NCBI RefSeq assembly: GCF_000165395.2
Contig: NC_067396.1
Span: 868,001 to 932,000, forward strand
From: Babesia bovis T2Bo
Lineage: Eukaryota; Apicomplexa; Aconoidasida; Piroplasmida; Babesiidae
DNA: 64,000 nt
Reading direction: 5' to 3'
The stretch's first letter is position 1. Each line of letters begins with the position of its first letter. Positions 5,350 to 63,806 of this stretch are shown here, piece after piece. Below the pieces are notes generated by a model. That model worked only from the letters and a program-made list of their open reading frames with translations, was not told the DNA's origin and did not search any database. Made by a program: the position numbers and the translations under genes.

Positions 5350-8300
5350 CTATGTCTTACCAAAAAACTCCAATATCCCCCTTCCCTTCTTCTTACCCAC
5401 CATCAGTACCTCCCATGGACTCAGACTGCCCTTCCCGAACCATCCTCTGCAATGCGACCTCATATGTGTCCAGTCCAGTGGCCATATGGCTCCAAAGGCT
5501 AGATACAGTACCGCCACTAGCCAGGCTACCGTGAGGACAAAGATCCAGGGGAGCCTGGTGGTGTAGATTAGTTGGTTTATTTCGTGGTGGAGCCCTGATT
5601 GAGAGCCATTCTTGAGGTGGTTACCCTCTAGGACCTTGTTCAGTGTCGTTAGGAAGTCGTGGCACTTCTTGTTCTGCGTACCACCACCTACTACACCATG
5701 ACTCCACATGACTACCCCTAGGGCACAGTTGCGCCCAAGGCGCCCTTATAGAACTTTCAGCAAAAGTGCTACTAAACTTTTGTGAAACTTTTACCAAAAC
5801 TACAGCTACACTTTCACCAAGACTGTCTTTACAGTGTTACTAAAACTTACCTTGTGCCTTGTGCAACTCCGTTACATCACCATACCCAAAGCCATACCTG
5901 TACAACACCGGCAGTACCCCGGTACATGATACGACAGATGGACATTTACATACGCCTTCATTAGCACTACCACCTTCGCATGTAGTACCATGATTACCCT
6001 GTCGACACTGATCTCCACATCCAGCAACTCCCGCCTTATCTACTAGATCATTAAAACATGACTATGTGGCGCGCCATAATATAGCATTAGAACTTACCCT
6101 TACACTCATCCTTGCACTGTATATTCAAATACTCTTTCTTGAGATCCTCCAGTCCCTTCTGGAACTCCCCTATCAAATAGACCAACCATGACAGGTAGGT
6201 CCCGGCCATCGCTGGACTCAACTGGCCATACTGCTGGCCACTCAGAGGAGAGAGGTATTGAGAGCATTGGCCGGTATTGGCACTGTTATCGCATTTATAT
6301 AGGCACTTAAGGGCACCAGTAGTGCCTGTCTTGCAATCTCCACCGTATTCCTTTAGTGCCTTGACCACTGCATTATTACCACTACCAATGGAAAGCATGT
6401 ACAGTTTAGATTCCCTTTCGAGCTCTCCTAGCTTCTTCTTCACTTCACTACTTCCACCACCCTTTTGTCCCCCAATGTAGACTATATAGTAATAGAACCC
6501 AAAGAGGTCACCCAGGGTCCGTGGCACCGTGGGAGTAATACAGGCCAGCAGTCTCAGTAGTACCACTAGGGTGCCATGTTGCTTTTCTGGGTCACAGTAG
6601 TACTCCAGGAGTAGCGACAGTGTATTCCCAGTGCAGTGGGCAGGATATGTGCCAGGAGTGCCTACTACAGGATTAGTCCATGTAGTATATTGTGGCACTT
6701 ACCAGTACCTCCTGTCAGTTTCGCTGTCTTGTGGCTTCCATTGTTCAAATCTGTGCATACCATGAGTCACTGTTAGTCACTAGGGCTACTGTGGCGCCCA
6801 GGGGGTGCCCCTAGTATATATACAGTGCTTTGGGGGTACCATATAGTACTGGGGCGTACCTTTGAAGTGGTTCTCTCTTTGTTGAGTACTGCCACTACCA
6901 CTTTCTGCGCTCCAACCCATTGGAACAGGGCACAACTTGGGGTAATTGAGGTCTGGCGTGCCAAAGTGACCTTTAGGATTATCATCTTTAGTGGTCCAAT
7001 GAGTCTCAATAGGTGGATAATCATCCACACCTTTGCCTACAGTGCTTTTGCACGCCATTAATCCTATTCCGTCACACAGGAATAACATCAATGGTGATTT
7101 ATGACTGGCGCTCTCCTTGCACTTGCAGTTGCCATTACTGGTACCTGCTACACCATTATTCCATATAGACACGTTTGCGCTGAAGCCGCCTTTTTAGCAT
7201 ATGGCGCGCATAGAACATGTATTACCACCTACCTTCCGCTTCACATATCCAAGAATATGAATTGCTCACTCCAGCATTTGGATTGACTCCACTACCATAC
7301 CTACAACTTTTCCAGCCCAGCACTGCCTTGTCCACACCCACTGTGCACTGCTTCCTTAGGAAATAGAGCTGGTAGAAGCAGTGGTAGACATATACCCTCA
7401 GTTGGTCCAGGCACTGGGCGGGAGAGCCGTCCATGTCAAAGCCAAAGAGCCCATTGGCGTACATCCCATGGAGGGGGCCTATAGAGTGTTAGGGAGTGTT
7501 AGACAGTGACTGAGTGGTACTAGTGGGTACCACTGTGACTAGTAGTGGTATACTAGGGTACTTACCAAACTTGGAGACTGCCAGGTGGTACCCGCCGTAG
7601 CAGACTTGACCGGCTTGGAGTTCTTGTCCGTTGGCGGAACCTCCCGTTGCCTGTTGTTTTCCTATATCTTTAGGGTTACACCTCTCGTGAGGTTTTTCTT
7701 TGTGATTGGAGCACTTGTTAGTACTCTGAGCAGTACCAGCAGTTCCACTTCCTCCTCCTGGACCTACTACACCATTAGTCCACATGACTACCCCTAGAGC
7801 ACTGTCGCGCCGAAGGCGCCCTTATATATCACTGTCTATATCACTCACCTCCACCTGGTGTATCTGTCTTCACTTCCCTTTCTATGGTCCCCTGGATACC
7901 GATGAGTACCAGTGGGCAGTAGCCACAGGCGGCCAGTAGGTAGTGGGTAATGTCCTTACGCTGGAGAGTGGTACTGGCATTACCAGCAGCTTTTTCATCG
8001 TACAGTTTGATTTCTGTCTCTCCGCTCCCATTGGTCACCTGATCCGTCTTCTCTTTCATCCTATCCACCAGCTTTCTGTACTTCTCACTATAGGGCAATG
8101 CACTTAGCCAGTATAGGATCTCCCGTATAGTCCTAGGTTTCCTAGAAGAGGGAGTGTCTTTTTTGGTATCACTCCCAGGGGCCGGCTTTGCCGGCGGAGT
8201 GACATTCTTCGCCCCTGCACTACCTGCCCTGAAGTACCCACTGGCCAGGATGTGGAGTACCAATAGGGGGTACTGCTCACATAATTGCTCTGTCTTGAGC

Positions 8301-9492
8301 TTCTTTTCCACTGCAGTCTTGGCCTTCTCATAGATACTGCTATAGTACTCAGCTACACTGTCTAGGGCACATTGGTACTATTGAGGAGGTGGGACTTACC
8401 CTTAGAAGTACTGTCTCCCTGGAATTCTTTCCATTGGATGCCTTTCTTTTCATCAGGATGCTTTCCCGTCAACAATTGTTGCACAAAATCTCCCGTCTTC
8501 GCGGGACCTACTACACCATAAGTCCACATGACCACCCTAGGCAGTACTCACCTCCTGTACCACCACTCCCATTCAACCTCTCCAGGTCATAGCCCATGGC
8601 CGCCATGAATGATCCGAGTCCCTTTTCGACATCACTCAGCGTATCATCCTTCCACCTCTTCTCTGTGCCACCACTCCCTTCCTTAGTTAGGAACCCCAAC
8701 TGACTGAGTCCACTCCAGATGAGACATACTGACCCTAGGAAAATACGGGCCAGGAGGTGGACCTTATCAGCGTCACTGGAGATGGTGGGCCAGTAGAATT
8801 CTGCTGTAGGGGGACTACTGGGAGGAGTTGTTGGTCTGCAGTAGGCCGATTGGTAGCACTTGTTTTTACCACTAGGACCACACGTGCCACACTGATGACA
8901 AGGAGTAGTACCACTACCACTGGTACCACAACAGTTACCACCAACACCAACACCACCAGGACAATCACACTTCCTTCCTATACCCTCTGTTCCCTTAAGA
9001 CAACAGGTATCCCCTTCCTGCCACCCTACCCACTTCTCTAGTCCCAGTGCCAACTGGTCTATCAGTGTCCCTATGACCTCGGTGCCACCAGCGCAAGTAG
9101 AGGTAGCACTAGTGCTGTCACTATTGACCAGTCCCAGGTCCTGGAGCACTGGCTTGACTATGGACTGTTCCTCTGTTAGGAGTATGTCGTCCCAGTTCCT
9201 CTTAGGGCTGGGACCAGGGAACCCCGGGTCCTTGGCGTCGTACAGTAGGTCCTTTATTGCTTTGGCCAAGTAGCAGAGGCAGTCTGTATGGTCATGTGGG
9301 AGCTAGTGTTAGTACTATTGACTTACGGGGGCCATTGCTAGTGCTTGCCGCAGCAGCTGCAGCAGCTGCCGCTGGTTTCTCATTCTTCTTACCATCCCTA
9401 CCAGTTACCCTAAGGACCCAGTCAATGGCCTCCTTCAGGTTGGTGGGAGCCTCAGTTAGGGAGGAGTGTGGCTTCCAGGTATCTTTAGACAT
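5350..9492 (-). CDS. ves1β: ves1-beta, VESA1b variant erythrocyte surface antigen (beta1, 11 exons)
   Basis: Predicted exons, all on minus: 9492-9327, 9283-8552, 8510-8400, 8361-7849, 7766-7566, 7478-7233, 7147-6860, 6750-6703, 6664-6098, 6042-5851, 5690-5350. They join into 1,134 codons plus stop with no internal stop, and every intron is phase 1. Seen in order: PTNLKEAIDWVLRVTG near residue 20, a poly-Ala linker, a Cys-rich segment, ARIFLGSVCLIWSG, RTIREILYWLSALPYS, CLDQLRVYVYHCFYQL, CTGNTLSLLLEYYCDPEK, a Cys-rich exon 10, a membrane segment from about residue 1068, and the tail ending GRGILEFFGKT. There is no N-terminal signal peptide and no long coiled coil. In this family VESA1b pairs with VESA1a on the red-cell surface. 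The ATG at 9490-9492 was chosen because all four beta genes start in the same context. It diverges from alpha1 over a 454-bp intergenic region. Exon edges come from GT/AG and reading frame only. Confidence 0.88.
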
Positions 9493-9946: not shown

Positions 9947-12900
9947 ATGGCCCCTGCAAGCACTTTCACGCCGAAGGCGTCGCTATGCGACTCTCCTACC
10001 AACCTCAAGGAAGCCATTGACTGGGTCCTCAGGGTAACTGGTAGGGATGGAAAGGCACTGAACAAGGACAATGGAGGTACGTTACTGTAGACATATGGAT
10101 AGTATGCGCGCCCTAAGGACAGTACTTGACAGTGCCCGTTACAGTGGCGCGCCCAGTACTATTGGAGTCACTCATGTACAGAATGCATATGTGGCTTGGC
10201 GGCGGCAGTGACTGACCTACTGCAGTCAGTAGAAATCGAGTACAATGGTAAGTACCTAGTACTAGAGTAGTACTATCTAGTACCACTACTGGTATACAGT
10301 ACCTCATGGTGTCCTATAGGCTATCAAGGCGATGTCAAAGACAGTGCTACCACCAACAAAGGCGCCACCAAAGAAGAAGTAACTAACCACCTCAACGAGC
10401 TATTCTCCCTGGTCCAGGGACTAGGTGGTACTGCAGTGGTACGGACCTATATAGACCAGCTGGCACAAGTACTCAGTGCACTAGTTGGGTGGAGTAAGAT
10501 AGTGAAGTGTGAGAATGGTGGCAAGTGCAAGACGGTTCATAGCAGCGATCTCAATGGCAATCCACACGGAAGTGATGGCTGCAAGTATCTAGAGGATAAA
10601 GACTCGGAGAACAAGTGTGACGACTGTGGGTGCATGAAATGGAAAGTATTCAAGGACATCGATTGGGTACAACTGGGCAGGGGGTGTACAAGGTGTAAGG
10701 GTAGTGGTAGTGAAGAAGAGGCGAAGAAGAAACCGTGTGGGTGTAGTACTGGTGGCAGTGACTCCTGTAGTGCTGGAAAGGAGTGTAAATGCGCTAAAGA
10801 AGGCAAATGCTGCAAGTGTTGTTGTACGGGTTGTAGGGGGAAGTGTAATGAAAAGGCAAAGTGTAGTTGTATCGAAGAGGGAAAAAATTTTGGCCATGAT
10901 GAATACCATAAAGACAGCTATAGGTCGGCGTACCCTAGTGGGACAGTTTACACAAGAGACTCATTTGTTGAATCCAAGCAGGTAGATGTCAAACCATACT
11001 GGAATGATCTTACCAATAGTCCTGATCGTAACCACTGTGCCCGTATCCTTCTAGGATCAGTATGTCTCATTTGGAGTGGCATTACCTACATGCATTGGAC
11101 AGGCAAGTATGAAAAAACCAGCCCCCGGTGGAACAACCACATCCTGGATGGCTCTGGTCTAGATGACGGTACCCTGTCCCAATGGCTACAGGCCCTAGGG
11201 TTTCCTAAAGATATGCTGAATGACAAAGGGCCGAAAAATAGATTAGATCAGGTCATATGGGATGGGTTTATGGGACGACTGTTTCTAGGGTTTACCCACC
11301 CTAGTGGCAGTGGTGCCGTTGACGGTAATACAGCAAAACAACCGTACCATATGAACTATGCCGGATTTGTGCATACTGCACATAGGGATTCATTCAATAA
11401 TGAAGCTAGAGTATTCCCTAATGGCAGTGGCTCTAGTACCACTGGCCAAATCAGTGACACTAACCAGCACAAGATTGGTGCCATTTTCAAGCTCTATATT
11501 CTATCATGTGCCTATTTTACTGGGTTACAGAAGAAGACTACTCACAGTACCCCTAGGAATCCCAAGACAATCCGTGAGATCCTCTACTGGCTTAGTGCAT
11601 TGCCCTATAGTCAGGCCTATAAGGATATGCTAGGTTACGCTAAGGAAAGACTAGCAGAAGTACTCAAGAAACCCGGAGACAATGCATCCACGACCGAGCA
11701 GTCCGAACTGAAATTCCACCAAACAGGCCGTTGGCATCCCATTACAGTTCATCAATATAACCTATTTGCCCACTTCCAAGCAGTGACTCAGTACTGCCCA
11801 CTGGTGCTCATAGGTATCCAGGGTGGCATACACAGTGCCACTAAAGGCACTGACAGGACTATGGAACCTGCCATTCACTCTCTATACTCCAACACTGAAT
11901 GCCACTTCACCTACCCAGCAGTTGATATCCAAGCATACAACCAGGTGGTACACTACATTAGGGCTCTGTTCTATCAGTTGTATTTCCTTAGGAAGCAATG
12001 TGCAGTTAAAGTGGCTCTAGGAGGGAAATGGCGTGAGTGTAGGTATGGCAATGGAGTAGAGTCAAAGGGGGTAATCAGCTGGATGTGCCTGGGGTGTAGC
12101 CCCATGGAACATGATAGGAAATGTAGGGTAGAGGATTTGAAGAAATGTTTAGTGGGGGTAACAAGTGGAACAGGTAAAAAGGAAGTGTTGGAGAAGGTAA
12201 AAGATTTACTGGAGAAGATTGGTGAAGTGGTGGTACAATTGGGTAATGCCCAGGAGAGGTTGGATAGGGGAAAGTCAGATCTACAGGGAGTGAGGCAGGC
12301 ACTAAAGAATGTATTTGATGGGGTGAATGGTGGGGATCCATTCAGGACTGTACTACAGAATGTACTAGGGAAATTGGCGGAGGAGAAGGTGAAGGGACTA
12401 GAGGATAGTGGACTAGAGGGGGTGACTAAACTAAAGGAGGCTGCTACGAAGGCTAAGGCGGCACTACAGGAGGCTAAAGAGGCAGTAGGAAGTGGTAGTG
12501 GTGATATTGATCCATGTAAGAATGCAGTGAGTGCTGCTATCCACGGGTTTCATCAGGTATTGGAGGCATTGAAGGATTGGTGTAATAAAATAAATGCAAA
12601 CGTTTGCCGACACAATATAAAAGACGCCATTATAAATGCCATCGACCAGCTCATCTCCATCTGCAACTCTCCCAAGTGCAGTGCATGTGACTCACACTCC
12701 AAGAAGTGTGGCAAACAGCCAGTGTCCAAGTACTGTGACAAATGCCACCAACAATACATGGACGGCACACCATCCCCCCTCCAGGCATTCCTCGAGGACA
12801 GGCTACCAGGTTTTAGTTGTAAAGAGGTGGTGGACGATGACACAGATAAAGACACAGTGTATCCCTCCGCTGCATCCCACCTAGACCACTGTAATGGCTC

Positions 12901-22027: not shown

Positions 22028-25000
22028 CTACTAGCCAGGCCAACGTGAGCACAAAGATCCAAGGGAGCCTGGTGGTGTAGATGAGCTGGTTTATCTCGTG
22101 GTGGAGGCCTGTTGTGGAGCCATTCTTGAGGTGATCTCCTGTTAGGACCTTTTCCAGTGTTCCCAGGAACTCGTGACACTTCTTCGTACCTACTACACTA
22201 TGACTACCCTAGGGCACAGTTGCGCCGAAGGCGCCCTTATAGAACTTTTGCCAACTATACTACTACACTATCTCTACACTATTCACACTACTATACTACA
22301 ACTTACCTCCAGTGTCGTGCAACTCCTTTACATCACCATACCCAAAGCCATACTTGTACAACACTGGTAGTACCCCGGTACATGATACGATTGATGAGCA
22401 GCCACAACAGTTATTCTTGTCTCCATGATTACCCTGTCGACACTGATCTCCACATCCAGAAGCAGCTCCTCCCACACCTACTACACCATGAATCCATATG
22501 ATACGGTTGCGCGCCGCCTGTTACACTGTCGCGCCGAAGGCGCCCCTATCTCCATGGGCGCGCCCATATACCACTGAAACTAACCTGTACCACACTCATC
22601 CTTGCACTGTATATTCATATAATCCTCCTTCAACTTATCCAACCCTCCCTGGAACTCCCCTATCAAATAGACCAACCATGACAGGTAGGTCCCGGCCATC
22701 ACGGGACTCAACTGGCCATACTGCTGGCCACTGAGGGGGCTTAAGTATTTGGCGCCAGTACCATAAGCGCAGTCTACTAGGCACTTAAGGGAGCCATTTT
22801 GTGTGCCTGTCTTGCAATCTCCACCGTATGTCTCGAGGGCTGTTACCACTGCATCAGGACCACCACCAATAGACGGCATGTGCAGTTTAGATTCCTTTTC
22901 TTTTCCTTTCAGTTTATCATACACTCCCTCTCCAACACCCTTGTTTCCCCCAATGTAGACTATATAGTAATAGAACCCAAAGAGGTCACCCAGGGTCCGT
23001 GGCACCGTGGGAGTAATACATGCCAGTAGTCTCAGTAGTACCACCAAAGTGCCACTCTGGCACTTTTCGGGGTCACAGTAGTACTCCAGGAGTAGTGACA
23101 GTGTATTCCCAGTGCAGTGGATGGGATAGTTACCAGGGCTAACACCACTACCTGCTACACCATTAGTCCATGTGACTGCCGTGTTGCCCTTATATACTAG
23201 GGTGGGACGTACCTTTGTCGAGCCCAGCTATCTTGTGCGTCTTGCTTAAATCTGTGCATACCATAAGTCACTATTAGTCACTAGGGCTACTGTGGCGCCC
23301 AGTGGGTGCCCCTAGTATATATAGTGTTATAATGGGACGTACCTTTGAAGTGTTTCTCCTTATCCATGCTCCAACCCATAGGGACTGGACAGTGTATGGG
23401 CGGTTTGCCAATATGCCCCAAAGGAGAAATGTCTTCGGGATCCATATGCTCCTTAATTTCCGGATATTCTTCCACATTGCCCTTACCGATTATGGCTTTA
23501 CACCTCAGTGATCCTAATCTATCACACAAGAAGCTCTGTAAGGGTGACTCAGTACGATTACTTGTACCTTCGAAAACACCACACTTTTTGGTGTGGTCCT
23601 TTCCATCCTGAGCAGTAGCAAGTCCTCCTGTACCTACTACACCATTAGTCCATGACTACCCCTAGGACACTGTTGCGCCGAAGGCGCCCTTATAAAGCAC
23701 TAGAACATACCATCTGTCTGACATATCCACTTGTTACTAACTTTTCCATCCATTTTTCCAACTTGGAAACCATACCTACAACTCTTCCAGCCCAGCACTG
23801 CCGTTTTATCCGTTGCCACCCCCTCCTTGCATTGCTTCCTCAGGAAATAGAGCTGGTAGAAGCAGTGGTAGACATATGCCCTCAGTTGGTCCAGGCACTG
23901 GGCGGGAGAGCCGTCCATGTCAAAGCCAAAGAGCCCATTGGCATACATCCCATGGAGGGGGCCTATAAAGTGTTAGGGAGTGGTACTGCTAGGGTACTTA
24001 CCGAAATCCTTTACTGCCAGGTGGTACCCGCCGTAGCAGACTTGGCCGGGCTTGAGTTGTTGGCCGGTGGAAGCTGACGGTGGTGCCGGTGCCTGGGTAG
24101 CTGCCTCTGCAGCCTTGTCTTTATCATCAAGGGTACACCTCTTAGATTTAGGGTCTTTCTTGTGTTCAGGACACCTGTTCTTCTCCGCAGCAGCAGCAGC
24201 TGGAGATACAGCTCCAGGTACTCCTACTCCGGGTACCCCTACCCCTGGAACACCTACTACACCATTAGTCCACATGACTACCCCTAGGGCACTGTTGCGC
24301 CGAAGGCGCCCTTATATATAGCACAAGACTAATGTACTCACCTACACTCGTGACTTCCCTTTCTATGGTCCCCTGGATACCGATGAGTACCAGTGGGCAG
24401 TAGCCACAGGCGGCCATTAGGTAGTGGGTTATACAGTCCCTCTTGAGGGTGGTACTGGCCTTAGCAGCACTGGTATCGTACAGCTCTATCTGGCCCTTTT
24501 TATCCTCAGAGTTCCCCTGGGTCACCTGATCCGTCTTTTGTTGCATCCTCTCTACCAGTGCCCTGTATCCCTGACTATATGGCAATGCACTGAGCCAGTA
24601 TAGAATCTCACGGATAGTCCTAGGTTTCCTAGGAGAGGGTGTTTCTTTCTTTTCAGTGGCCGGCGAAGCCGTCACAGTTACCTTATTGGCCCCGGCACTA
24701 CCTGCCCGGAAGTACCCACTTGCCAGGATGTGGAGTACCAATAGGGGGTACTGCTTACATATTTGCTCCGTTTTGAGCTTCTTTTCCACTGCAGTCTTGG
24801 CCGTACTATAGATACTGCTGTAGTACTCAGCTACACTACCTGGGTCACATTGGTCCTACTGAGGAGGTGGACTTACCTGAATCAGCGCCTTTAGTGAATT
24901 CTTCAAATGCTCCTGGTTTATCGTTTTTTCCAGCAAATATATTCCATAATAAGTATCCACTTCCTTTATACAACTTATCCAGGTCATAGCCCATTGACGC

Positions 25001-25805
25001 CATGAATGAGCCGAGACCGGCATTGGTATCACTGATATCGTACAAACTACTTTGCCTCCACCTATTGTCTCCTACCAACCACCCCAACTGACTGAGTCCA
25101 CTCCAGATGAGACATACTGACCCTAGGAAAATACGGGCCAGGAGGTGGACTTGATCTGGCTGGTCCGAGATGGTGGGCCAGGAGCATTCTGAAGGGGGAA
25201 TGGAAGCATCGTTAGGGGTACTAGCGCAGTTATCATATGATGATTGATACTCCTGCTCCACATTCCCTGCAGTCCATTGACTACCGATGCCGGAACCGTC
25301 ACAGTATCTTATGGTGGCGTTACTGTGTTTCCCCTGATCCTGCCACCCAACCCACTTCTGTAGTCCCAGTGCCAAGTGGTCTATCAGTGTCCCTATGACC
25401 TCGGTGCCACCAGCGCAGGTATCCCTGGCAGCACTAGTGCTGCCACCACTTAGGAGTCCCAGGTCCGTGAGCACTGGCTTGACTATGGACTGTTCCTGGT
25501 CTAGAAGTATGCCATCCCAGTACCTCTCAGGGTGTGGACCAGGGGACCCCGGGGACCTGGCGTCGTACAGTAGGTCCTTCACTGCCTTGGCAAGGTAGCA
25601 CAAACAGTCTGTGTGGTCATGTACGTACTACAGTGAGTACTATTGACTTACGGGGGGCATTTTCAGGCTTTGGTGGCGGCTGCGCCGCTTCATTCTTCTT
25701 ACCATCCCTACCAGTTACCCTCAGGACCCAGTCAATGGCCTCCTTCAGGTTGGTGGGAGCCTGGGTGAGGCTGTCGTGTGGCTTCCAGCCCTTTGCTGCT
25801 GCCAT
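21867..25805 (-). CDS. ves1β: ves1-beta, VESA1b (beta2, 10 exons, alpha-type tail)
   Basis: Predicted exons on minus: 25805-25652, 25608-24877, 24839-24342, 24256-24002, 23962-23711, 23636-23343, 23251-23213, 23154-22585, 22480-22307, 22192-21867; 1,097 residues, all introns phase 1. It lacks the intron that splits exons 2 and 3 of beta1. It has the beta features PTNLKEAIDWVLRVTG, ARIFLGSVCLIWSG, RTIREILYWLSALPYS, a VGVPGVGVPGAV linker, CLDQLRAYVYHCFYQL and YLSPLSGQQYGQLSP. The Cys-rich segment of exon 2 is much reduced compared with beta1. The membrane segment starts near residue 1032. The tail is alpha-type (HQWQCMWYKVMTGRKG, ending ALVEYFGKT), unlike the other three beta genes, because the 3' end lies in the inverted copy of alpha2. 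Four of its introns share the hairpin cassette. Confidence 0.87.
22509..22564 (-). repeat. Composite palindrome in a beta2 intron
   Basis: GCGCGCC arm, TGTTACACTG, inner hairpin GCGCC-GAA-GGCGC at 22,531-22,543, then a GGGCGCGCC arm. It sits in the intron between the exons ending at 22,585 and starting at 22,480. Same plan as the promoter element at 9,802-9,858. Confidence 0.75.
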
Positions 25806-26233: not shown

Positions 26234-29200
26234 ATGTCTTCTTTTAAGCCCTATTCTTCACTAACTGACGCTCCCACCAACCTGAAGGAGGCCATTGACT
26301 GGGTCCTGAGGGTTACTGGTAAGGATGGAAAGCCACTAGACGAGAAGAATGGAGGTACGTTGCTGTAGACACAGATATAAGGGCGCCAAAGGCGCCCAGT
26401 AGTATATAGACTCACCCCTGTACAGAATGTATATGTGGCCTGGCGGCGGCAGTGACTGACCTACTGCAGTCAGTACAACTGGAGTACCATGGTAAGTAAT
26501 CAGTACTAGAGTAGTGCTATCTAGTACTCCTACTGGTATACAGTACCTCATGGTGTCCTATAGGCTATGAAGGTGAAGCTCCAAACAATGGCCCCCCAAA
26601 AGATCAAGTAACACAATACCTCAATGGACTCTTCTCCCTAGTCCAAGGCCTAGGTGGTACTGCAGTGGTCCGGACCTATATAGACCAGCTGGCACAGGTA
26701 CTCAGTGCACTCGTTGGGTGGAGTAAGATAGATAAGTGTTGGGACAAGGGCAAATGCCAGAAGGGTGGCAATGGATATCAACATGGCATAAAAACGGAAT
26801 GCGGATATCTAAAGGATGTAACACCAAACACGCCGTGCAAGGAATGTGGGTGTATGAAATGGAATGATCCCAATCCGAGCAGTAATGAAGGACACCACCT
26901 AGGAAGGAGGTGTACAAAGTGTAAGGGTAGTGGTGATAGTACAGGGTGTAGCTGTAGTAGTGCTGGTGGCAAGCAGTGTACTGCTGACAAGGAGTGTAAA
27001 TGCGACAGAAAATGTGAATGTACCAATGGTACATATAGATCGGCATATGGAGAGAATGTCAGCTACCAATCATACATAGGAGAAATCCACCAACTATGTA
27101 GACCACCGAATTGGGAGTATTTAAAGCGTGGCCCTCCTGGTTTCAATGCTGATGGCAAGCAGATAAAGGACGGATTGACCCCCTCCCAACGCCGACACCA
27201 ATGTGCCCGTATTCTCCTAGGGTCAGTATGCCTCATCTGGAGTGGACTTACATATATGTATTGGACTGGTAAATGGGCCAAGAGTAGTCCCCGGTGGAAC
27301 AATCACATCCTGGATGGCACTGGTCTAGATGATGGTACCCTATCACAATGGCTTCAGGCCCTAGGGTTTCCTAGGGAGATGTTGAATGACCATGGTCCTG
27401 GAAATAGATGGGATCAGGTTATTAACAATGACTTTGTACAAAAGTTTTATTTAGGTTTCGCGGATACAAGTGGAAGTAGTGGCAATAATGGCCATGGCAA
27501 TGACATCAATGGTACTACATTTAGGAATCCATCTAGCATGAACTATGCTGGATATATACATACTTTAGAGAAGGGTGCATTTTGCAGCAACGCTACCGTC
27601 TTCAAGAAAGCTAATGGCGCCACAATTACTGAGGAAAACATACACAAATGTGGCGCCTTGTACAAGCTTTACATTCTATCATGCGCTTACTTTACTGGAT
27701 TGCAGAAAAAGCGTAGTACCCAGAGCAATACTCCTACGACTCCTAGGACAATCCGAGAAATCCTCTACTGGCTCAGTGCATTGCCCTATAGTCAGGCATA
27801 CCAAGAGATATTGAAGCATTCCAAGGAAGTATTGAAGAAGGTAGCACCAGATAAGGGTGGTACTAAAACGCTCTCATTTATCCAAACAGGCCGTAATGCT
27901 CCCATTACCGTTCATGAATTCAACCTGTTTGCCCACTTCCAAGCAGTGACTCAGTACTGCCCACTGGTCCTCATATGTATCCAGGGTGGTATACACAGCA
28001 CTAACAGCAGTACTCCTGCCATTCACTCCCTCTATGCCAACACTGAATGCCACTTCACCTATCCCACTGTATCCATCCAAGCATACAACCAGGTGGTACA
28101 CTACATTAGGGCTCTGTTCTACCAGCTCTACTTCCTTAGGAAGCAGTGTGCAGTGAAAGTTGCCCTAGGAGGTAAATGGCGTGAGTGTAGGTATGGTGAT
28201 GGGGTAGTCTCTAAGGGGGTTATTAGCTGGATGTGCCTGGGGTGTAACCCCATGGAACATGATAGGAAATGTAGGGTGGATGAGTTGGGGAAGGAGTTGG
28301 TGGGGGTAATAAATAAGCTAACGGCATTGGAATGGCGAAAGGCTGAGGAGACGAAAAAGAGAGAAGAAAAACTAGAGAGGGCTGAGAAATTGATAACTCT
28401 ATTCGAAGCTATTGGGAATGTAGTGGTACAATTGGGTAATGCCCAGGAGGCATTGGAAGGGAAGAAGAAAGAGGCGATAGAGGCGGTGAAGACGAAACTA
28501 ACGGCGGCTAGGACGGGACTACATAGTGCTAAGGAGAAGTTGAATGAGAATGGGCTGAATGAGGAACTAAAGGATGCTAAGGCAGCACTAGGGGTGCTGA
28601 CGAATGGTGGTGGTGGTAATGGAGGAATACTAGAGAAGTTAATAGGGGGTGATGGACTAGATAAGGCTAGTAATGGTGAAGAAAACCAGAGGGACTTCAG
28701 TAGTGGGAAGGACAGGATAAGTGAGGCTATCAATAAGGTACATGAAGTAATGAAGCTTATAAAGGAGTGGGCGGAGCAAGATAAAGACGAGGTTATATGC
28801 CATCTGAAGGACCCATATAATGAATTCCTCAAGGCTATCGAAGACCTCATTTCAATCTGCACCTCTCCCAAGTGCCCGCCATGTGAATCACACTCCAAAA
28901 AATGTGGCCAACCATCCACACCCAGTATCTGTAGGACCTGTCTCCAACCCACTACCACTGGTGTCCCCTCCCCCCTCCAGGCATTCCTCGAGGATAGGCT
29001 ACCAGGTTTTAGTTGTGACGAAGTGGTGAACGATGACAAGGACAATCCAGATTATCCACCCGCTGCATCCCACCTAGAACACTGTAATGGCTCAGGCCAG
29101 TGCTGCCCACTGCCAATGGGTTTCAGGGGGCAGTTCCTCAAGGGAGGCATCAGTGATTGTACCGGCAAACGCCTTTACGGCATCCTCTACTTCTTCAGTA

Positions 29201-42200: not shown

Positions 42201-43544
42201 AGTCTCTTTCTTGGTATCACTAGTGGCCGGCTTCGCCGGCGTCACTTTATTGGCCCCGGCACTGCCTGCCCTGAAGTACCCACTGGCCAGGATGTGGAGT
42301 ACCAATAAGGGATAATCCTGACATAATTTCTCAGTGGTACTGCCCTTGGCAGCACCCTGTGCTGCACCATAGATACTACTGTAGTACTCAGCTACACTAT
42401 CTGGGTCACATTGGTACTACTGAGGAGGTGGACTTACCACCAGTCTTGTCACCTAACGAGGCAAATTCTTTCCACGGGATGCTATTTTTCTTATCTTTAC
42501 CCGCAAGTATTTTCCACACGACGTATCCAGTCCCATTTTTAATCCTATCCAGGTCATAGCCCATGGCCGCCATGAATGATGCAAGTCCCTTATTCTCAGC
42601 ATTCTCTATGTTGTTCAAACTACTTTCCTCCCACCTTCTCTCGCTGCCCTTAGCGTTGCACGTCAGGAACCCCAACTGGCTGAGTCCACTCCAGATGAGA
42701 CATACTGACCCTAGGAATACCCGGGCCAGGAGGTGAACATCTGTAGTACTGTTGGTAGTACTGTTACAATAACGTACCTTGGGCGGCCTTCACTGGGTTG
42801 ACAGTAACTGCACTACCAGCACTTCCACTTCCTCCGGCACCTACTACAGGATAACTCCATATGACTACCAGTGGGTACTTACCTGTGGTACCATTGACTA
42901 TGTTCGTCCATAAGGCCGAGTCCTTGTTGTAGGCTGACTTATAGCAATTGTTCGCAGAGGCACAGGTACAAGTACCACTAGAACCGGTACAACAACCGCC
43001 AGCACCACCACCAGGACATGTACACTTCCCTCCTATCCCAGTTTCCGTATCTAGACAACAGACTTCCTTGCCTTTCTGCCACCCAACCCACTTCTGTAGT
43101 CCCAGTGCCAAGTGGTCTATCAGTGTCTTAATGACCTCGGTGCCACCGGCGCAGGTATCCCTAGCAGCACTAGTGCTGTCACCAAGGAGTCCCAGGTCCG
43201 TGAGCACTGGTAGCACTAATGTCTTCTCCTGGTCTAGGAGTAATGTGTCCCAGTACCTCTGTTGGCTGGGACCAGGGGACCCCGGGTCCTTGGCGTCATA
43301 CAGTAGGTCCTTCACTGCCTTGGCCAAGTAGCACAGACAGTCTGTGTAGTCATGTGGGTGCTACTGTGAGTGCTATTGACTTACGGGGGGCATTGCTAGT
43401 GCTTGGCGGCGCCGCCGGCGCCGTCTTCTCATTCTTCTTACCATCCTTACCAGTTACCCTCAGGACCCAGTCAATGGCCTCCTTCAGGTTGGTGGGAGGC
43501 TTAGTGAGGCTGTTGTAAGGGGTCCAGGCCTGTGCTTGTGCCAT
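39236..43544 (-). CDS. ves1β: ves1-beta, VESA1b (beta3, 13 exons)
   Basis: Predicted exons on minus: 43544-43385, 43341-42883, 42843-42778, 42740-42438, 42400-41894, 41807-41607, 41566-41300, 41205-40930, 40829-40779, 40719-40396, 40233-39958, 39868-39683, 39564-39236; 1,134 residues, all introns phase 1. Three introns (42,844-42,882; 42,741-42,777; 40,234-40,395) are absent from the other beta genes, and the beta1 intron between exons 2 and 3 is absent here. Conserved blocks: PTNLKEAIDWVLRVTG, a Cys-rich segment with CTCPGGGAGGCC, ARVFLGSVCLIWSG, RTIREILYWLSALPYS, CLDQLRVYVYHCFYQL, VVSCTGVLPVLYKYGF, a membrane segment from about residue 1068 and a beta-type tail ending LEYFGGR. The acceptor of the exon starting at 41,807 is moved 3 bases because the usual TGTAG is TGTGG. 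The last exon has no Met and depends on splicing. Confidence 0.86.
40305..40352 (-). repeat. ~50-bp GCGCGCC inverted-repeat element in beta3-specific intron
   Basis: Lies inside the 162-nt intron that only beta3 has. On the coding strand it has the order GGCGCGCC, GTACCTGACAGTGTCCGT, GGCGCGC, matching the alpha intron 1 elements. Confidence 0.75.
41231..41280 (-). repeat. ~50-bp GCGCGCC inverted-repeat element in a beta3 intron
   Basis: Within the intron 41,206-41,299, in the orientation of transcription. At the same intron position beta1 has a decayed trinucleotide-loop hairpin and beta2 an intact one. Confidence 0.72.
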
Positions 43545-43837: not shown

Positions 43838-46800
43838 ATGGCCCCTGCAAGCGCTTTCACGCCGAAGGCGTCACTAACCGACGCTCCCACCAACCTGAAG
43901 GAGGCCATTGACTGGGTCCTGAGGGTTACTGGTAGGGATGGTAAGGCACTGAGTGATGATGGTACGTTACTGTAGACACATAGATTGTATGCGCGCCCGT
44001 AGAGATAGTACCTGACAGTATCCGTTACAGTGGCACGCCCAGTACTATTGGATTCACCCCTGTACAGAATGTATATGTGGCCTGGCGGCGGCAGTGACTG
44101 ACCTACTGCAGTCAGTAGAACTGGAGTACCATGGTAAGTACCCAGTACTAGAAGTAGTACTGTATAGTACTACCACCGGTATACAGTATCTCATGGTGCC
44201 CTATAGGCTATCAAGGTGATGTTATGAATGGTAGTCCTGACGCTGCTGACAAAACCAAAACCAAAGGCGCCACTCAACAGCAAGTCAAAGGCCACCTTAA
44301 TGGACTCTTCTCCCTAGTCCAGGGACTAGGTGGCACTGCAGTGGTACGGACCTATATAGACCAGCTGGCACAGGTACTCAGTGCACTCGTTGGGTGGAGT
44401 AAGATAGTGAAGTGTTGGGACAAGGGCAAGTGCAAGGGGACTAATGGCGATAGCAAACCGCACGGCCAAAGTGGCAGTGGTGGCACTGGTGGCAAGTGCC
44501 AATATTTAGAGGATGTAAAGCATGAGAACAAGTGTGAGACGTGTGGGTGTATGAAATGGGAAGTGCCCAAGCCGGGTGAACACAGTAAAGGACACCATCT
44601 GGGCAGGGGGTGTACAAGGTGTAGTGATAGTAGTGATCAGTGTCAGTGTAGTAGTAGTGGTGATTGTAGTTCTGGCAAGGAGTGTAAATGCGCTTTAGCA
44701 GGCAAATGCTGCAAGTGTTGTTGTACGAATTGTAGGGGGAGGTGTAAGAATGGTTGGGGTGGAGAAAAAGAATGTATATGTAAAAACGCAGAGGACAGCT
44801 ATCGATCGGCATACCCAGGAGAAACATATTATAAGAGAACATCATACGTTGAATCAATAAAAATAGAAAACACACCATCGTGGAACAATCTACAGCACTT
44901 ACCACCTGGTAGTACTATCAATAGTACTACTATTACTCAACGCCGTCACCACTGTGCCCGGATCCTACTAGGCTCAGTATGCCTCATATGGAGTGGACTC
45001 ACTTATATGTATTGGACTGGTAAGTGGGCCAAGGGTAGTCCCCGTTGGAACAACCATATCCTGGATGGTACGGGTCTAGATGACGGTACCCTGTCCCAAT
45101 GGCTACAGGCCTTAGGGTTCCCTAAAGCAATGCTTAATAATAGTGGGCCACAGAATCGACTTGATAAGGTCATATGGGATGGACTTAGTGATAAGTTGCT
45201 TCTAGGGTTTGCTAAGCCTAGTGGCGCCACTGGCTGGGACAGTGAGGGTAATACAGCAAGGAATCCATTCGCTATGAACTATGCCGGTTTGGTACATACT
45301 ATACATAGGGATTCATTCAACAATGATGGTGCTATTGTGTTCCCTAATGGCTCTTCCTCAAGTAGTAATGACATTGACCAGCACAAACGAGGTGCTCTCT
45401 TCAAGCTCTATATTCTATCATGTGCTTACTTTACAGGGTTACAGAACAAAGCTCCGCCGAAGGCGGACAATAAAGCTCCCCGTACTATCCGGGAAATCCT
45501 CTACTGGCTAAGTGCATTGCCCTATAGTCAGGCATATCCAATGATATTGAAGCATGGTAAGCATAGACTAACCGAGGTACTCAAAAAACCCGATGGGAGT
45601 GACTCTAGTACTGACAATGACCAGAAACAACTGAAGTTTCACCAGACAGGCCGCACAGCACCCATTACCGTTCATGAATTCAACCTGTTTGCCCACTTCC
45701 AAGCGGTGACTCAGTACTGCCCACTGGTGCTCATAGGTATCCAGGGTGGACTACACAGCACTAACAGCAGTACTCCTGCCATTCATTCCCTCTATGCCAA
45801 CACTGAATGCCACTTCACCTATCCCACTGTGTCCATCCAAGCATACAACCAAGTGGTCCACTACATTAGGGCTCTATTCTACCAGTTATACTTCCTTAGG
45901 AAGCAATGTGCAGTTAAAGTCACTTGTGGAGGGAAATGGCGTGAGTGTAGGTATGGCAGTGGAGTGATTGGGAAGGATGTAGTTAGCTGGATGTGCCTGG
46001 GGTGTAGCCCCATGGAGCATGATAGGAAAAAGAGGGTTGAGAAGGTAAATGGGGAGTTGGGGAAAGTATTGCCCCAGGGGAAATCAGAGGAAGAAGATGA
46101 TGAAGCTATTGCAAAGACTTTGAAAACATTATTGGAGAATATCGGAGAAGTAGTGGTGCAATTGGGTAATGCACAGGAGGCATTGGAAAGGAGGAAGGGA
46201 ATAGATGGGGTGAAGCGGGCACTAGATAGGGCTAAGGATGGACTACAGAGGGCTAAAGAGAATGATGGGGAAAACGTGGGAACTAGGTTATATGGGATAC
46301 TAGAGGAGAAGGTGGATGAAGGGGTGGAGGATAAGCTGAAGGATAATCTAACAAAGGTTAAGGATGCACTAAACGCATTGACGACGAATGGTGGTAATGG
46401 AAAACTGAAGGATGTAGTGGATAAACTAGGTAACGATCCCAGCAGTGCTAAGGATAATATAAGTGCTGCTATCCATAACGTACTAGAAGTACTGAGGGCA
46501 CTAATGAAAGGACTTGAAGCAGCAGGAAAAAATGAAGAGGCAAAGAAGAAACTGGGTAACCATCAAGAAGCACTGCTCAATGCCACAAGCAAACTCAAAG
46601 AGATATGCAGCATCGCCAGGTGCCCAGGATGTAACGACCATTCCAAGAAGTGTGGCCAAAAGCCAGTGCCCACCACCTGTAATACCTGCCACCAACAATA
46701 CATGGACGGCTTTCCCTCCCCCCTCCAGGCATTCCTCGAGGATAGGCTACCAGGTTTTAGTTGTGACGAAGTGGTGAACGATGACAAGGACAATCCAGAT

Positions 46801-57725: not shown

Positions 57726-57729
57726 TTAC

Positions 57730-59455: not shown

Positions 59456-59489
59456 CTGTAATCATATCTATTTAATACCCCTAACAACT

Positions 59490-59842: not shown

Positions 59843-62800
59843 CTATGTCTTACCAAAAAACTCTAGTATCCCCCTCCCCTTCTTCTTACCCACCATCAGT
59901 ACCTCCCATGGACTCAGACTACCCTTCCTGAACCATCCCCTACAATGTGACCTCATATGTGTCCAGTCCAGTGGCCATATGGCACCAAATGCTAGGTATA
60001 GCACCGCCATTAGCCACGCTACCGTGAGAACAAAGATCCAGGGCAGCCTGGTGGTGTAGATGAGCTTATTTATTTCATGGTGGAGGCCTTTTTTGGCGCT
60101 GTCCAATTGCTCACCGCCTAGGACTCCCTTCAAGGTCTCCAGGAAGTCGTGGCACTTCTTCGGACCTACTACACTATGACTACCCCTAGGGCACTGTTGC
60201 GCCGAAGGCGCCATTATAGCACTGTCTCTACACTATCCATACTACTATACTACAACTTACCTGGACCATTGTGCAGCTTCTCTACATTACCATACCCAAA
60301 GCCATACTTGTACAATACCGGTAGTACCCCGGTACATGATACGACAGAGGCACACTTACAGACTCCGCCACTGCCACTACCACCAGTGCACTTATCACCA
60401 TGGGTTCCACTGGTGCATGTACCATTGCCACATCCACCACCAGCTCCCTGACCTACTACACCATTAATCCATATGACACGGTTGCGCGCCACCTGTTACA
60501 CTGTCGCGCCGAAGGCGCCCCTATCTCTCCATAGGCGCGCCACTATAAGCACTAGAACTCACCTCTACCACACCCATCACCCTTACAATCCACCTTCTTG
60601 AACTCCTCTTTCAACCCCTCTAGTCCTTTCTCAAACTTTTCAATCAAATAGACCAACCATGACAGGTAGGTCCCTGCCATCAAGGGACTCAACTGGCCAT
60701 ACTGCTGGCCACTCAGAGGAGAGAGGTATTGAGAGCATTGACCACTAGGGGCACCCGTATTGCACCCTGTTAGGCATTTGAGGGTTCCTTTTGTGCCTGT
60801 CTGGCAATCTCCACTGCTCCACCCAGTGAGTGCCTCGACCACTTTATCACCTTGACCCATATAGAGTACCACCTCCTTTTCTAAATCTCCTAGCTTCTTC
60901 TTCACTTCATTACTTCCATTCCCATTTCCCCCAATGTAGACTACATAGTAATAGAACCCAAAGAGGTCACCCAGAGTCCGTGGCACCGTAGGAGTAATAC
61001 ACGCCAGTAGTCTCAGTAGTACCACTAGGGTGCCACTTTGGCACTTTTCTGGGTCACAGTAGTACTCCAGGAGATGTGACAGTGTATTCCCAGTGCAGTG
61101 TACAGGGTAAGTGCCTTGGCCTGCTAGAGGATGAGTCCATGTAATATACTGTGGGACGTACCTGGTTGCTGTAGTGCCTCTGTCTTGTGCGTCTCTTTCA
61201 AATCTGTATACACCATGAGTCACTGTTGGTCACTAGGGCTACTGTGGCGCCCAGGGGGTGCCCCTAGTATATATACAGTGCCTTTGGGGTACCATGGAGT
61301 AGTGGTTTATAGAGTAATGAGACGTACCTTTGAAGTGACCATATTTACTCTCTGACTGCCATCCCATAGGAACAGGACATATCTGAGGGAACTTCAGCAG
61401 TGGCGGGTCGAAGTGACCCTTAGGATTGTCATCCTTAGTGTTAATATGCTCAATAATTTCGGGATAGGTGTTCGTATCACTATCGGGGGTTCTTTCCACT
61501 GTCCTTTTGCAGACCATAGATCCTATTCCATCACACAGGAATAACATCAGTGGTGAGTCCTTACCACTGACAGTCTTGCACTGACAGTCCGTCCCACCTG
61601 CTACACCATTAGTGCATGACTACTCTGTAGCGCCATATAAGACACTGATAACGTTCTCTATTATACACATGGCCCTCCCATAGTATCTGTACTAAAACCT
61701 ACTTTTGGTCTCACATAACCAAGGATGTGAATTCTTGACTCCACCACTGGGATTCACTCCACTACCATACCTACAACTCTGCCAGCCCAGCACAGCCTTC
61801 TTGTCTCCTGCCACTCCCACCGTGCATTGCTTCCTCAGGAAATAGAGCTGGTAGAAGCAGTGGTAGACATATACCCTCAGTTGGTCCAGGCACTGGGCGG
61901 CCGAAAGGTCCATCTGGAAGCCAAAGAGCCCATTGGCGTACATCCCATGGAGGGGGCCTACACATGGTGTTACGGAGTGGTACTGCTAGGGTACTTACCG
62001 AAATCCTTTACTGCCAGGTGGTACCCCCTGTAGCATACCTTTCCTTGCTTGGTGAGTTCATTATCTTTGTTGCAATCTGTCTTTTCTTCTTTCTTCTTGC
62101 CATAATTGGTGCACTTATTCTCCGCAGTACCAGCAGCAACTCCTCCGGCACCTACTACACCATTAGTCCATATAACTACCCCTAGGGCACTGTTGCGCCG
62201 AAGGCGCCCCTATAGATCCCTGTCTATATCACTCACCTGTAGCAGGAGCACTTTCAATGCCACTGGTAGCTATGGTCCCCTGGATACCGATGAGTACCAG
62301 TGGGCAGTAGCCACAGGCGGCCATTAGGTAGTGGGTAATACAGTCCCTCTTGAGGGTGGTATTGCCATTCTGCTCACCGTGAAGCACTATTTCCGTCGCT
62401 GTTTCCTGTGGTTTGCCCTCTTTCCTAGGATACTTTTGTTGCATCCTCTCCACCAGTGCCTTGTATCCCTGACTATAGGGCAATGCACTTAGCCAGTATA
62501 GGATCTCCCGGATTGTCCTAGGTTTCCTAGGATCACTAGATGGCGCCGAAGGCGCCACAGGTACTTTATTAGCCCCGGCACTACCTGCCCTGAAGTACCC
62601 ACTGGCCAGGATGTGTAGTACCAATAGGGGGTAGTCCTTACAGATGGATTCAGTAGTACTCTTGGCAGCCTCCTTGGCCTTCTCATAGATTTCACTATAG
62701 TACTCAGCTACACTACCTAGGGAACATTGGTACTATAGAGGAGGTGGACTTACCCTTAGTAGCACTGTCTCCCTGGAATTCCTTCCATTGGATACCATCC

Positions 62801-63806
62801 TTTCCACTTGGATCCGTTCCCGATAGTAACTTTTGCACAAACTGCCCCGTCTTATCACCTACTCCACCATAAGTCCACATGACTACCCTAGGCAGTACTT
62901 ACCTCCACTCCCCTGATTCAACCTCTCCAGGTCGTAGCCCATCGCCGCCATGAATGAGCCGAGACCGGCATCGGTACCATCTATCTTGTGCAAACTACTA
63001 TTCTTCCACCTATTGTCCTTGCCACCACTCCCCTTTCCTGTTAGGAATCCCAACTGACTGAGTCCACTCCAGATGAGACATACTGACCCTAGGAAAATAC
63101 GGGCCAGGAGGTGGACTTGATCTGCCTTGTCCGAGAGGGTGGGCCAGTAGTAGTCACCTTCAGTGTTGCTGCCACCACCAGAAGTGGCGGTCTTTTTGCA
63201 ATAGGCTGACAAGTAGCATTTTTGGCCAGCACTACTGGTACCACACTTGCCACAATCATGACAAGTAGTACCAGCACTACCACTGGTACTACAACAATTG
63301 GCACCAACACTACTACTACCAGTACATTTACACTCCCTTCCTATCCCATTACTCTCTCCACCTGTTCCTTTAAGACAACACGTATCCCCTTCCTGCCACC
63401 CAACCCACTTCTGTAGTCCCTGTGCCAACTGGTCTATCAGTGCCCTTATGACCTCGGTACCACCGGCGCAGGTAGTACTAGCAGTAGTGCTATCAGTGCT
63501 GCCACCATTAAGGAGTCCCAGGTCCGTGAGCACTGGATTGACAATGTCACTCTCCTGCTCTAGGAGTATGCCATCCCAGTACCTCTCAGAGCTGGGACCA
63601 GGGGACCCCGGGTCCTTGGCGTCATACAGTAGGTCCTTCACTGCCTTAGCGAGGAAACAGATGCAGCCGAATTGGGGCGGCGAAGCCGCCGCTGCATTCT
63701 TCTTACCATCCTTACCAGTTACCCTGAGGACCCAGTCAATGGCCTCCTTCAGGTTGGTAGGTGCTTGGGTGAGGCTGGAGTAAGGCCAGGTGGACTGTGT
63801 AGACAT
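59843..63806 (-). CDS. ves1β: ves1-beta, VESA1b (beta4, 10 exons, first intron missing)
   Basis: Predicted exons on minus: 63806-62903, 62861-62754, 62716-62237, 62154-61999, 61957-61703, 61600-61328, 61203-61162, 61123-60563, 60455-60261, 60168-59843; 1,099 residues, all introns phase 1. The first 43-nt intron of beta1-3 is absent: PTNLKEAIDWVLRVTG runs straight through an Ala-rich linker into CICFLAKAVKDLLYDAKD. The intron after DLERLNQGSG is present, as in beta1. Other blocks: a Cys-rich segment with CCLKGTGGESNGIGREC, ARIFLGSVCLIWSG, RTIREILYWLSALPYS, CLDQLRVYVYHCFYQL, YLSPLSGQQYGQLSP, a membrane segment from about residue 1033 and a beta-type tail ending GRGILEFFGKT. The linker after FRAGSAGANK contains an in-frame hairpin, GGCGCC-GAA-GGCGCC (62,542-62,556). 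An alpha partner is expected to the right of the window. Confidence 0.87.
60484..60541 (-). repeat. Composite palindrome in a beta4 intron
   Basis: Same plan as 22,509-22,564, in the same intron position of beta4: outer GCGCGCC/GGCGCGCC arms and inner hairpin at 60,506-60,518. Confidence 0.75.

What the first reader, a model, noticed from the sequence alone, without database searches (positions are those of the whole stretch)
5350..63806. Introner-like introns: the same cassette in several introns of one gene, with presence/absence between paralogs
Seen: in beta2 four introns (about 22,193-22,306; 22,481-22,584; 23,637-23,710; 24,257-24,341) contain a GC hairpin and end in very similar sequence, with GGTGTAG or AGTGTAG before the exon; three also share a CCCTAGGG-type run. 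Beta1, beta3 and beta4 show the same. Intron sites differ between paralogs: the 41-nt intron at 8,511-8,551 has a near-identical counterpart in beta4 (62,862-62,902) and none in beta2 or beta3; beta3 alone has introns at 42,844-42,882, 42,741-42,777 and 40,234-40,395; beta4 alone lacks the first intron. Near-identical introns at non-homologous sites are the hallmark of introner-like elements in other eukaryotes. I know of no such description for Babesia ves genes, but could not search.
Basis: partly seen in the sequence, partly recalled or inferred. Interest (0 to 1): 0.82.

Follow-up and report, generated by a model that had tools for sequence, protein, structure and literature searches.

The report
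Shared recombining introns in Babesia antigens
In a cattle blood parasite, the genes for one half of its variable surface protein carry look-alike introns at different places, nearly all cutting the code at the same frame position, and at least two of these introns look like joins of two others, so antigen genes may be rejoined there without breaking the reading frame.

Summary
The window is a ves1 alpha/beta array of Babesia bovis T2Bo. Its four beta genes hold 40 predicted introns at 13 sites (S1-S13). Introns at eight sites (24 of 40) share a 3' module, some also a GC hairpin. Across 26 beta genes 479 of 24,299 cross-site pairs are alike end to end; a 4,000-pair sample gave 73 real against 0 shuffled. 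The 100 listed (of 123) genomic copies of the module lie within 7.9 kb of a VESA1_N match.

The introner reading is only partly supported: the family stays inside one gene family, most sites keep their own subtype, and no target-site duplication is shown.

New: (1) 244 of 246 site-assigned introns are phase 1, which AG|G availability in alpha and beta exons does not explain. (2) Sites S4-S13 are uninterrupted in three alpha and three gamma-like genes, which favours gain in beta over the published loss in alpha. (3) Two introns clearly combine two sites, joined in the hairpin module; one (C1:998,719) sits in a beta gene that lacks six exons and stays in frame.

Best reading: a copied intron family that can act as frame-safe recombination joints. 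Splicing is inferred, not observed.

The parts
5688..5850 (-). beta1 S13 intron, class C, two-site intron: S13-type left of the hairpin, S6-type right of it
6040..6097 (-). beta1 S12 intron, class C
6662..6702 (-). beta1 S10 intron, class C
6751..6859 (-). beta1 S9 intron, class N (donor GTACGC set by homology)
7145..7232 (-). beta1 S8 intron, class C with decayed hairpin; the gene finder stopped 45 nt short (7190-7232)
7479..7565 (-). beta1 S7 intron, class N
7764..7848 (-). beta1 S6 intron, class C, hairpin
8353..8399 (-). beta1 S5 intron, class N
8508..8551 (-). beta1 S4 intron, class C without hairpin
9284..9326 (-). beta1 S1 intron, class N
22190..22306 (-). beta2 S13 intron, class C, hairpin
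22478..22584 (-). beta2 S12 intron, class C, hairpin nested in longer palindrome
23152..23212 (-). beta2 S10 intron, class C
23252..23342 (-). beta2 S9 intron, class N
23634..23710 (-). beta2 S8 intron, class C, hairpin; 91% identical over 76 aligned positions to an S6 intron of another gene
23963..24001 (-). beta2 S7 intron, class N
24254..24341 (-). beta2 S6 intron, class C, hairpin
24831..24876 (-). beta2 S5 intron, class N (annotated acceptor 9 nt upstream)
25609..25651 (-). beta2 S1 intron, class N
39565..39682 (-). beta3 S13 intron, class C, hairpin
39866..39957 (-). beta3 S12 intron, class C, hairpin (annotated protein differs here)
40234..40395 (-). beta3 S11 intron, class C with long palindrome (annotated protein uses another donor)
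40717..40778 (-). beta3 S10 intron, class C
40830..40929 (-). beta3 S9 intron, class N
41203..41299 (-). beta3 S8 intron, class C; 88% identical over 66 aligned positions to alpha1 intron 1
41567..41606 (-). beta3 S7 intron, class N
41808..41893 (-). beta3 S6 intron, class C, variant hairpin
42392..42437 (-). beta3 S5 intron, class N (annotated protein differs here)
42741..42777 (-). beta3 S3 intron, class N
42841..42882 (-). beta3 S2 intron, class C; open frame, annotated as coding; doubtful
43342..43384 (-). beta3 S1 intron, class N
60166..60260 (-). beta4 S13 intron, class C, hairpin (annotated protein differs here)
60453..60562 (-). beta4 S12 intron, class C, hairpin nested
61121..61161 (-). 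beta4 S10 intron, class C (annotated protein skips the exon before it)
61204..61327 (-). beta4 S9 intron, class N (annotated protein skips the exon after it)
61598..61702 (-). beta4 S8 intron, class C
61958..61998 (-). beta4 S7 intron, class N
62152..62236 (-). beta4 S6 intron, class C, hairpin
62708..62753 (-). beta4 S5 intron, class N (annotated acceptor 9 nt upstream)
62859..62902 (-). beta4 S4 intron, class C without hairpin
10077..10181 (+). alpha1 intron 1 with the long palindrome shared with beta S8 and S11
26355..26425 (+). alpha2 intron 1 with a GGCGCC hairpin
43962..44067 (+). alpha3 intron 1 with the long palindrome

Best explanation
The ves1-beta genes carry one intron family that multiplied inside the family. 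Eight of 13 sites hold relatives of one intron: a GT donor, often a hairpin module (around TATAAGGGCGCCTTCGGCGCAACAGTGCCCTAGGGGTA) and a 3' module (CATRTGGACTAATGGTGTAGTAG|GT). Steps shown: between-site likeness, restriction of the listed copies to ves loci, near-uniform phase 1 at the assigned sites, absence of S4-S13 from the alpha and gamma-like genes read, and two introns whose halves belong to two sites with the join in the hairpin module. Steps inferred: (a) the introns were gained in the beta branch by copying an older family intron into Gly/Ser linkers, probably by the same short-tract, microhomology-tolerant repair that drives segmental gene conversion in this parasite; (b) the shared hairpin module can work as a joint where introns of different sites recombine; (c) because both partners are phase 1, such joins keep the reading frame, as in the S6/S13 two-site intron at C1:998,719. 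The phase uniformity is best read as the result of copying from phase-1 introns plus survival of frame-keeping joins.
For: Cross-site likeness: 744 BLAST rows against 0 in 5 shuffled rounds; end-to-end pairs 479 of 24,299, and 73 against 0 in a 4,000-pair sample. Phase 1 in 244 of 246 site-assigned introns; AG|G sites in phase 1 are only 26% (alpha) and 30% (beta exons); proteasome introns of this genome are of mixed phase. S4-S13 uninterrupted in 3 alpha and 3 gamma-like genes. Two-site introns among 64 hairpin introns examined: beta1 S13 (left 63.5 to S13 against 12.0 to the next site; right 43 of 43 to S6 against 27.0) and L021 (left 30.5 of 33 to S6 against 16.5; right 34 of 34 to S13 against 20.5), the latter with S6 and S13 exon flanks. 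L021 lacks the exons between, and its last exon is open to the stop in phase 1. Beta2 S8 is S6-like over nearly its whole length. The hairpin is sense-oriented in 40 of 40 window copies outside the divergent promoters. Gene models: annotated proteins agree at 21 of 30 junctions of beta2-beta4.
Against: No RNA evidence. Six class C sites keep their own subtype (112 of 112 nearest neighbours at the same site), so exchange is rare there and the spread is old. Of the 11 of 24 S8 introns nearest to another site, only four score 30 or more; the rest are weak. Likeness between sites is no higher within a gene than between genes (0.369 against 0.366). S13 and S8 are weaker members. AGGT in two gamma ORFs is phase 1 in 15 of 19, which weakens the phase argument if AGGT is the target. 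Of 56 gene-finder calls not assigned to a site, 30 are not phase 1. Filled S4 and S11 sites carry extra codons. Beta2 S8 and L030 S8 have ambiguous left halves, so only two introns are clear two-site joins. These could be assembly errors in repeats; reads were not seen.
Confidence: 0.53

Rival explanations
1. True introner-like element: a mobile intron with its own insertion mechanism (DNA transposon-like or RNA-mediated) that inserted at AG|GT sites of ves1-beta genes.
For: End-to-end similar introns at different sites; sharing largely confined to the intron plus AG|GT; sense-only orientation of the hairpin outside promoters; absence from alpha and gamma-like genes at S4-S13. The survey of PMC9860276 removes paralogous families by design (passages), so it would probably have missed this.
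Against: No copy away from ves loci among 100 listed of 123; no target-site duplication shown; uniform phase 1 not predicted; extra codons at filled sites; folds not exceptional.
Confidence: 0.18
2. Palindromic repeats dispersed in ves loci inserted secondarily into old, unrelated introns and into intergenic DNA, so the likeness is of the inserts, not of the introns.
For: The hairpin 13-mer occurs 243 times in the genome; in the window also 3' of genes, in promoters and once in an exon; a second palindrome is shared by alpha intron 1, beta S8 and S11.
Against: The S2, S4 and S10 introns shown lack the exact hairpin yet share the 3' module up to the acceptor; 479 pairs are alike end to end.
Confidence: 0.2
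3. All sites are ancestral to ves1; alpha and gamma lost their introns by reverse transcription, and ectopic conversion made the beta introns alike.
For: The published view is that alpha came from an incompletely spliced beta transcript (PMC4066756, section 22 part 1); alpha keeps two 5' introns, as 3'-biased loss predicts; S1 and an intron at S2/S3 are shared with gamma-like genes (by eye).
Against: Needs two separate near-total losses (alpha and gamma) and conversion between sites whose exon flanks share little; the class N sites were not made alike.
Confidence: 0.2
4. Shared splicing-control module: selection keeps the same branch-point and acceptor block so that beta introns are spliced together under one regulator.
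For: The conserved block includes CTAAT/TTAAT and the acceptor; intron ends are more conserved than both adjacent exon flanks at S4, S5, S6, S8, S9, S10, S11 and S12, not at S1, S2, S3, S7 or S13.
Against: Class N introns of the same genes lack it; likeness extends over hairpins and whole introns; the two two-site introns follow ancestry, not function.
Confidence: 0.09

Closest known systems
Introners / introner-like elements (Micromonas, fungi, dinoflagellates; passages of PMC9860276 and PMC3443670 seen)
   Same: Similar introns at non-homologous sites, sense orientation, similarity reaching near both splice sites in 479 of 24,299 cross-site pairs.
   Different: Listed copies confined to one paralogous family; near-uniform phase 1; no TSD or TIR shown; sites mostly keep subtypes; two introns join halves of two sites; the published pipeline filters paralogous families.
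Segmental gene conversion of ves1 genes in B. bovis (PMC7485966, passages seen)
   Same: Same gene family; short tracts (mean about 109 bp in wild type) with microhomology or none at the joints; Rad51 not essential.
   Different: The published tracts concern ves1-alpha transcripts; the word intron does not occur in that main text. Here the joins lie in introns and between different sites.
Exon shuffling with symmetric class 1-1 exons (recalled, animal modular proteins)
   Same: Internal exons are bounded by phase-1 introns, so a join between two introns keeps frame.
   Different: Exons are not duplicated modules; exchange is inside one gene family.
Stwintron propagation in Hypoxylaceae fungi (search listing and start of abstract only, PMC8469720, PMC12403724)
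   Same: Sequence-similar introns at new positions within one lineage.
   Different: Those are nested introns, as far as the abstract starts tell.

Membership tests
Introner / introner-like element | Groups of introns alike up to near both splice sites at non-homologous positions | tested here: met
   479 of 24,299 cross-site pairs meet a both-ends criterion modelled on PMC9860276 (within 10 intronic bases); 73 real and 0 shuffled in 4,000 pairs
Introner / introner-like element | Present in many unrelated genes | tested here: not met
   100 of 100 listed of 123 module copies lie within 7.9 kb of a VESA1_N match; 23 copies were not listed
Introner / introner-like element | Insertion mark (target-site duplication or terminal inverted repeats), seen in part of known families | tested here: inconclusive
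   AG|GT flanks cannot tell TSD from protosplice site; empty sites are diverged or the filled ones carry extra codons
Introner / introner-like element | Stable RNA fold (fungal ILEs) | tested here: not met
   12 introns folded (11 beta, 1 alpha): z from -1.6 to +1.4 for the 11 beta introns; alpha1 intron 1 reaches -2.5
Introner / introner-like element | Efficient splicing | not testable with these tools
   no RNA data held
Exon-shuffling-competent gene (symmetric 1-1 exons) | All introns in one phase | tested here: met
   244 of 246 site-assigned introns in phase 1; 56 unassigned calls (26 phase 1, 13 phase 0, 17 phase 2) left out; proteasome control mixed
Exon-shuffling-competent gene (symmetric 1-1 exons) | Observed in-frame join between introns of different sites | tested here: met
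   L021 S6/S13 intron, last exon open; one case, assembly not checked against reads
Tandem exon duplication as the source of like introns | Exons between the like introns are homologous | tested here: not met
   The 15 best of 184 cross-exon BLASTP rows (E up to 10) are a fused first exon and short or Cys/Gly-rich matches, best 1.6e-6

The most novel reading that the evidence does not exclude
Introns as built-in joints for antigen diversification: a phase-locked intron family with a shared hairpin lets segmental recombination join any intron of a ves1-beta gene to any other without a frameshift, so coding blocks behave as exchangeable cassettes. On this view the introns of beta were gained, and alpha did not lose them.
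Probability: 0.28. Interest if true: 0.82.

Novelty: new variant of a known kind. Interest (0 to 1): 0.6.

Why it matters
It gives a case of intron multiplication inside a single antigen family, a place that the large introner survey excludes by its paralog filter. It questions the published explanation that alpha is a retro-copy of beta, because gamma-like genes lack the same ten introns. It also offers a testable route by which noncoding DNA could shape antigen-gene recombination: the introns share one phase, and the two clear joins fall in a shared hairpin module.

Tried and rejected
Tandem exon duplication: the best cross-exon matches are short or Cys/Gly-rich. Within-gene homogenisation: between-site likeness equals that between genes. 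RNA structure as the driver: of 12 folds only alpha1 intron 1 has z below -2. Bare-intron insertion with a duplicated target: filled S4 and S11 sites carry extra codons, and upstream exon sharing ends at AG. S2 as a secure intron: doubtful, open in frame in 4 of 6 copies and annotated as coding in beta3, while 2 of 6 hold a stop. A phase-0 call near the start, alike in 8 genes, was judged false: in beta4 the annotated protein starts inside that stretch. Intron phase in print: one search gave three papers, none read for it. Literature: searches listed no title on shared ves introns or introners in Babesia; the lists were cut at 20 of 43, 20 of 76 and 25 of 27. The B. bovis genome paper is not held; papers on ves1-beta cDNA in subscription journals were not seen. 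Rows dropped: of 302 gene-finder calls, 56 not assigned to a site (noise before the start or after the stop, some fused real introns in L012, L020 and L028), 2 in phase 0, 7 second copies; S13 calls ending CCCTAG were left out, and S11 also out of the nearest-neighbour count. S1 counts are lower bounds because some stretches began too late (beta1 S1 was missed). Proteasome junctions: 5 of 12 gave no candidate and one of the 7 is ambiguous.


Full report
Setting. The window is C1:868,001-932,000 of an 8.23-Mb assembly. Proteins of the region are recorded as Babesia bovis T2Bo VESA1 subunits, and the long frames match VESA1_N, PF12785. [quoted passage not shown] The recombination biology of this family (segmental gene conversion, divergent promoters) is known from PMC7485966 (passages) and PMC4066756 (passages, and section 22 part 1 of 2).

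Observation. A coding/splice-site Viterbi search gave the beta gene models, which I curated to 40 introns in four genes at 13 sites, S1-S13. Three annotated VESA1 beta proteins match beta2, beta3 and beta4 and agree with 21 of my 30 junctions (8 of 9, 8 of 12, 5 of 9), with one residue between exons as expected for phase 1 and the distal AG. The nine differences are S5 in all three, S2, S11 and S12 in beta3, and S9, S10 and S13 in beta4. The annotation is itself a prediction as far as I know. Beta1 had no such match among the 23 proteins used. Beta1 S8 was called 45 nt short; its sequence shows the module ending at 7145.

Two intron classes. S4-S6 reach 89%, S2-S4 and S2-S6 80%, and the lowest class C pair is 37% (S10-S13), so S13 is a weak member. 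Pairs involving class N sites (S1, S3, S5, S7, S9) range from 8 to 38%, against 26% for shuffles. BLAST over whole introns, alpha introns included: 744 cross-site rows, 0 in five shuffled rounds. Both-ends similarity: 479 of 24,299 pairs; in one 4,000-pair sample 73 real and 0 shuffled. Some S9 introns also pair with S6 (22 pairs), so S9 may be a distant member.

Where the sharing stops. Over class C pairs of different sites, identity falls to background upstream of AG|; downstream it stays at 0.88 and 0.69 for GT and 0.26-0.45 for the next 16 bases, which are Gly-rich, against 0.24-0.28 in frame-matched exon further on. Of the 300 best pairs the right-hand similarity ends at or before the acceptor in 157, at +2 or +3 in 56, at +4 to +9 in 28 and at +11 or beyond in 59; of the top 25 it ends by +3 in 11, and beta2 S8 against several S6 introns runs 21-29 bases into the linker.

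Confinement. The 23-base 3' module has 123 places with up to 3 mismatches and 0 in the reversed control. The 100 listed places lie within 7.9 kb of a VESA1_N match, while 13% of C1-C5 lies within 10 kb of one. The hairpin 13-mer has 243 copies and 0 in the control. In the window it is sense in 40 of 40 copies in beta introns (10), 3' regions (29) and one exon; in the divergent promoters it is 3 to 1.

Phase. 244 of 246 site-assigned introns are phase 1; 56 further calls without a site were left out (26 phase 1, 13 phase 0, 17 phase 2). AG|G is in phase 1 in 26% of cases in alpha, 30% in beta exons and 44% in two gamma frames; AGGT in 32%, 25% and 79% (n = 19 in gamma). In proteasome genes of the same assembly the 7 of 12 junctions that gave a candidate have best phases 0, 2, 2, 1, 1, 0, 0, one of the zeros being ambiguous. 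So neither the genome nor the alpha and beta target makes phase 1 the rule; the small gamma AGGT count points the other way.

Polarity. Three window alpha genes and three gamma-like genes (C3 near 0.696, 1.498 and 1.541 Mb) run through the regions of S4-S13 in one frame. That these are the published gamma genes (N = 3 in PMC4066756) is inference. S1 is shared with gamma, and one gamma-like gene has an intron whose donor matches S2 and whose acceptor matches S3 (read by eye). Thus S1 and S2/S3 are old, and S4-S13 were seen only in beta. The published account derives alpha from an incompletely spliced beta transcript. With gamma also intronless there, gain in beta needs no second mass loss; but the published tree is unrooted, and I could not see ves1 gene structures of other species.

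Exchange. Six class C sites are self-contained: all 112 nearest neighbours lie at the same site. S8 is not: 11 of 24 introns are nearest to another site, four of them with a score of 30 or more (beta2, L016, L025, L030), the rest weakly. Splitting 64 hairpin-bearing introns at the hairpin gives two clear two-site introns. Beta1 S13 has an S13-type left half (63.5, next site 12.0) and a right half equal to an S6 intron (43 of 43, next site 27.0). L021 (C1:998,719-998,798) has an S6-type left half (30.5 of 33, next 16.5) and a right half equal to an S13 intron (34 of 34, next 20.5), with S6 upstream and S13 downstream exon flanks. Beta2 S8 and L030 S8 have S6-like right halves and ambiguous left halves; the S12 cases tie or nearly tie between S12 and S8 or S11; L036 S6 points to beta1 S13 only because that one is S6-like. 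The six exons between S6 and S13 are missing from the L021 gene (matches to middle exons elsewhere on L021 lie on the other strand, where the neighbouring alpha gene is), and the last exon is open to its stop. This looks like a natural intron-to-intron recombinant that keeps frame because both sites are phase 1.

Mechanism. Shown: likeness, confinement of the listed copies, phase, absence in relatives, two joins. Inferred: copying into Gly/Ser linkers by the family's repair-driven conversion, and the hairpin module as a joint. The extra Gly/Ser codons at filled S4 and S11 sites (by eye) suggest that the copied unit carried some codons, which would also fix the phase; exon sharing beyond GT is too weak to prove this.

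Standing. By sequence criteria these introns work like introners; by distribution they are not filed as such. The survey that searched for introners broadly removed paralogous families and named var genes as the clearest case (passages), so this pattern falls in its blind spot.

Noticed in passing
window 62543-62555: The hairpin 13-mer lies in a coding exon of beta4 (S5-S6), in a Pro/Ala/Ser-rich linker.
   Followed up: partly
window 3709-4020, 20865-21173, 14740-14975, 15560-15870: Extra copies of the last (membrane) exon lie downstream of beta1, beta2 and alpha1; possible alternative terminal exons.
   Followed up: partly
window 42741-42882 and L038 (C3:695000-697500): In six beta genes S2 and S3 flank a small Gly-rich exon, where a gamma-like gene has one intron from the S2 donor to the S3 acceptor; the exon may be a new exon inside an old intron.
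   Followed up: partly
window 49796-51923: Four hairpin copies spaced exactly 705 bp apart downstream of alpha3.
   Followed up: no
window 272-3123, 16977-20103, 35595-38677, 55653-59447: A similar set of tandem arrays (22, 43, 45 and about 32 bp units) recurs between successive ves pairs; three of the four 45-bp arrays lie in open frames of 156-239 aa.
   Followed up: no
L021 5324-5623 against window 42438-42740: One exon of the L021 beta gene is 99% identical in protein to beta3, while other beta3 exons match it at 63-75%, a sign of recent segmental conversion.
   Followed up: no
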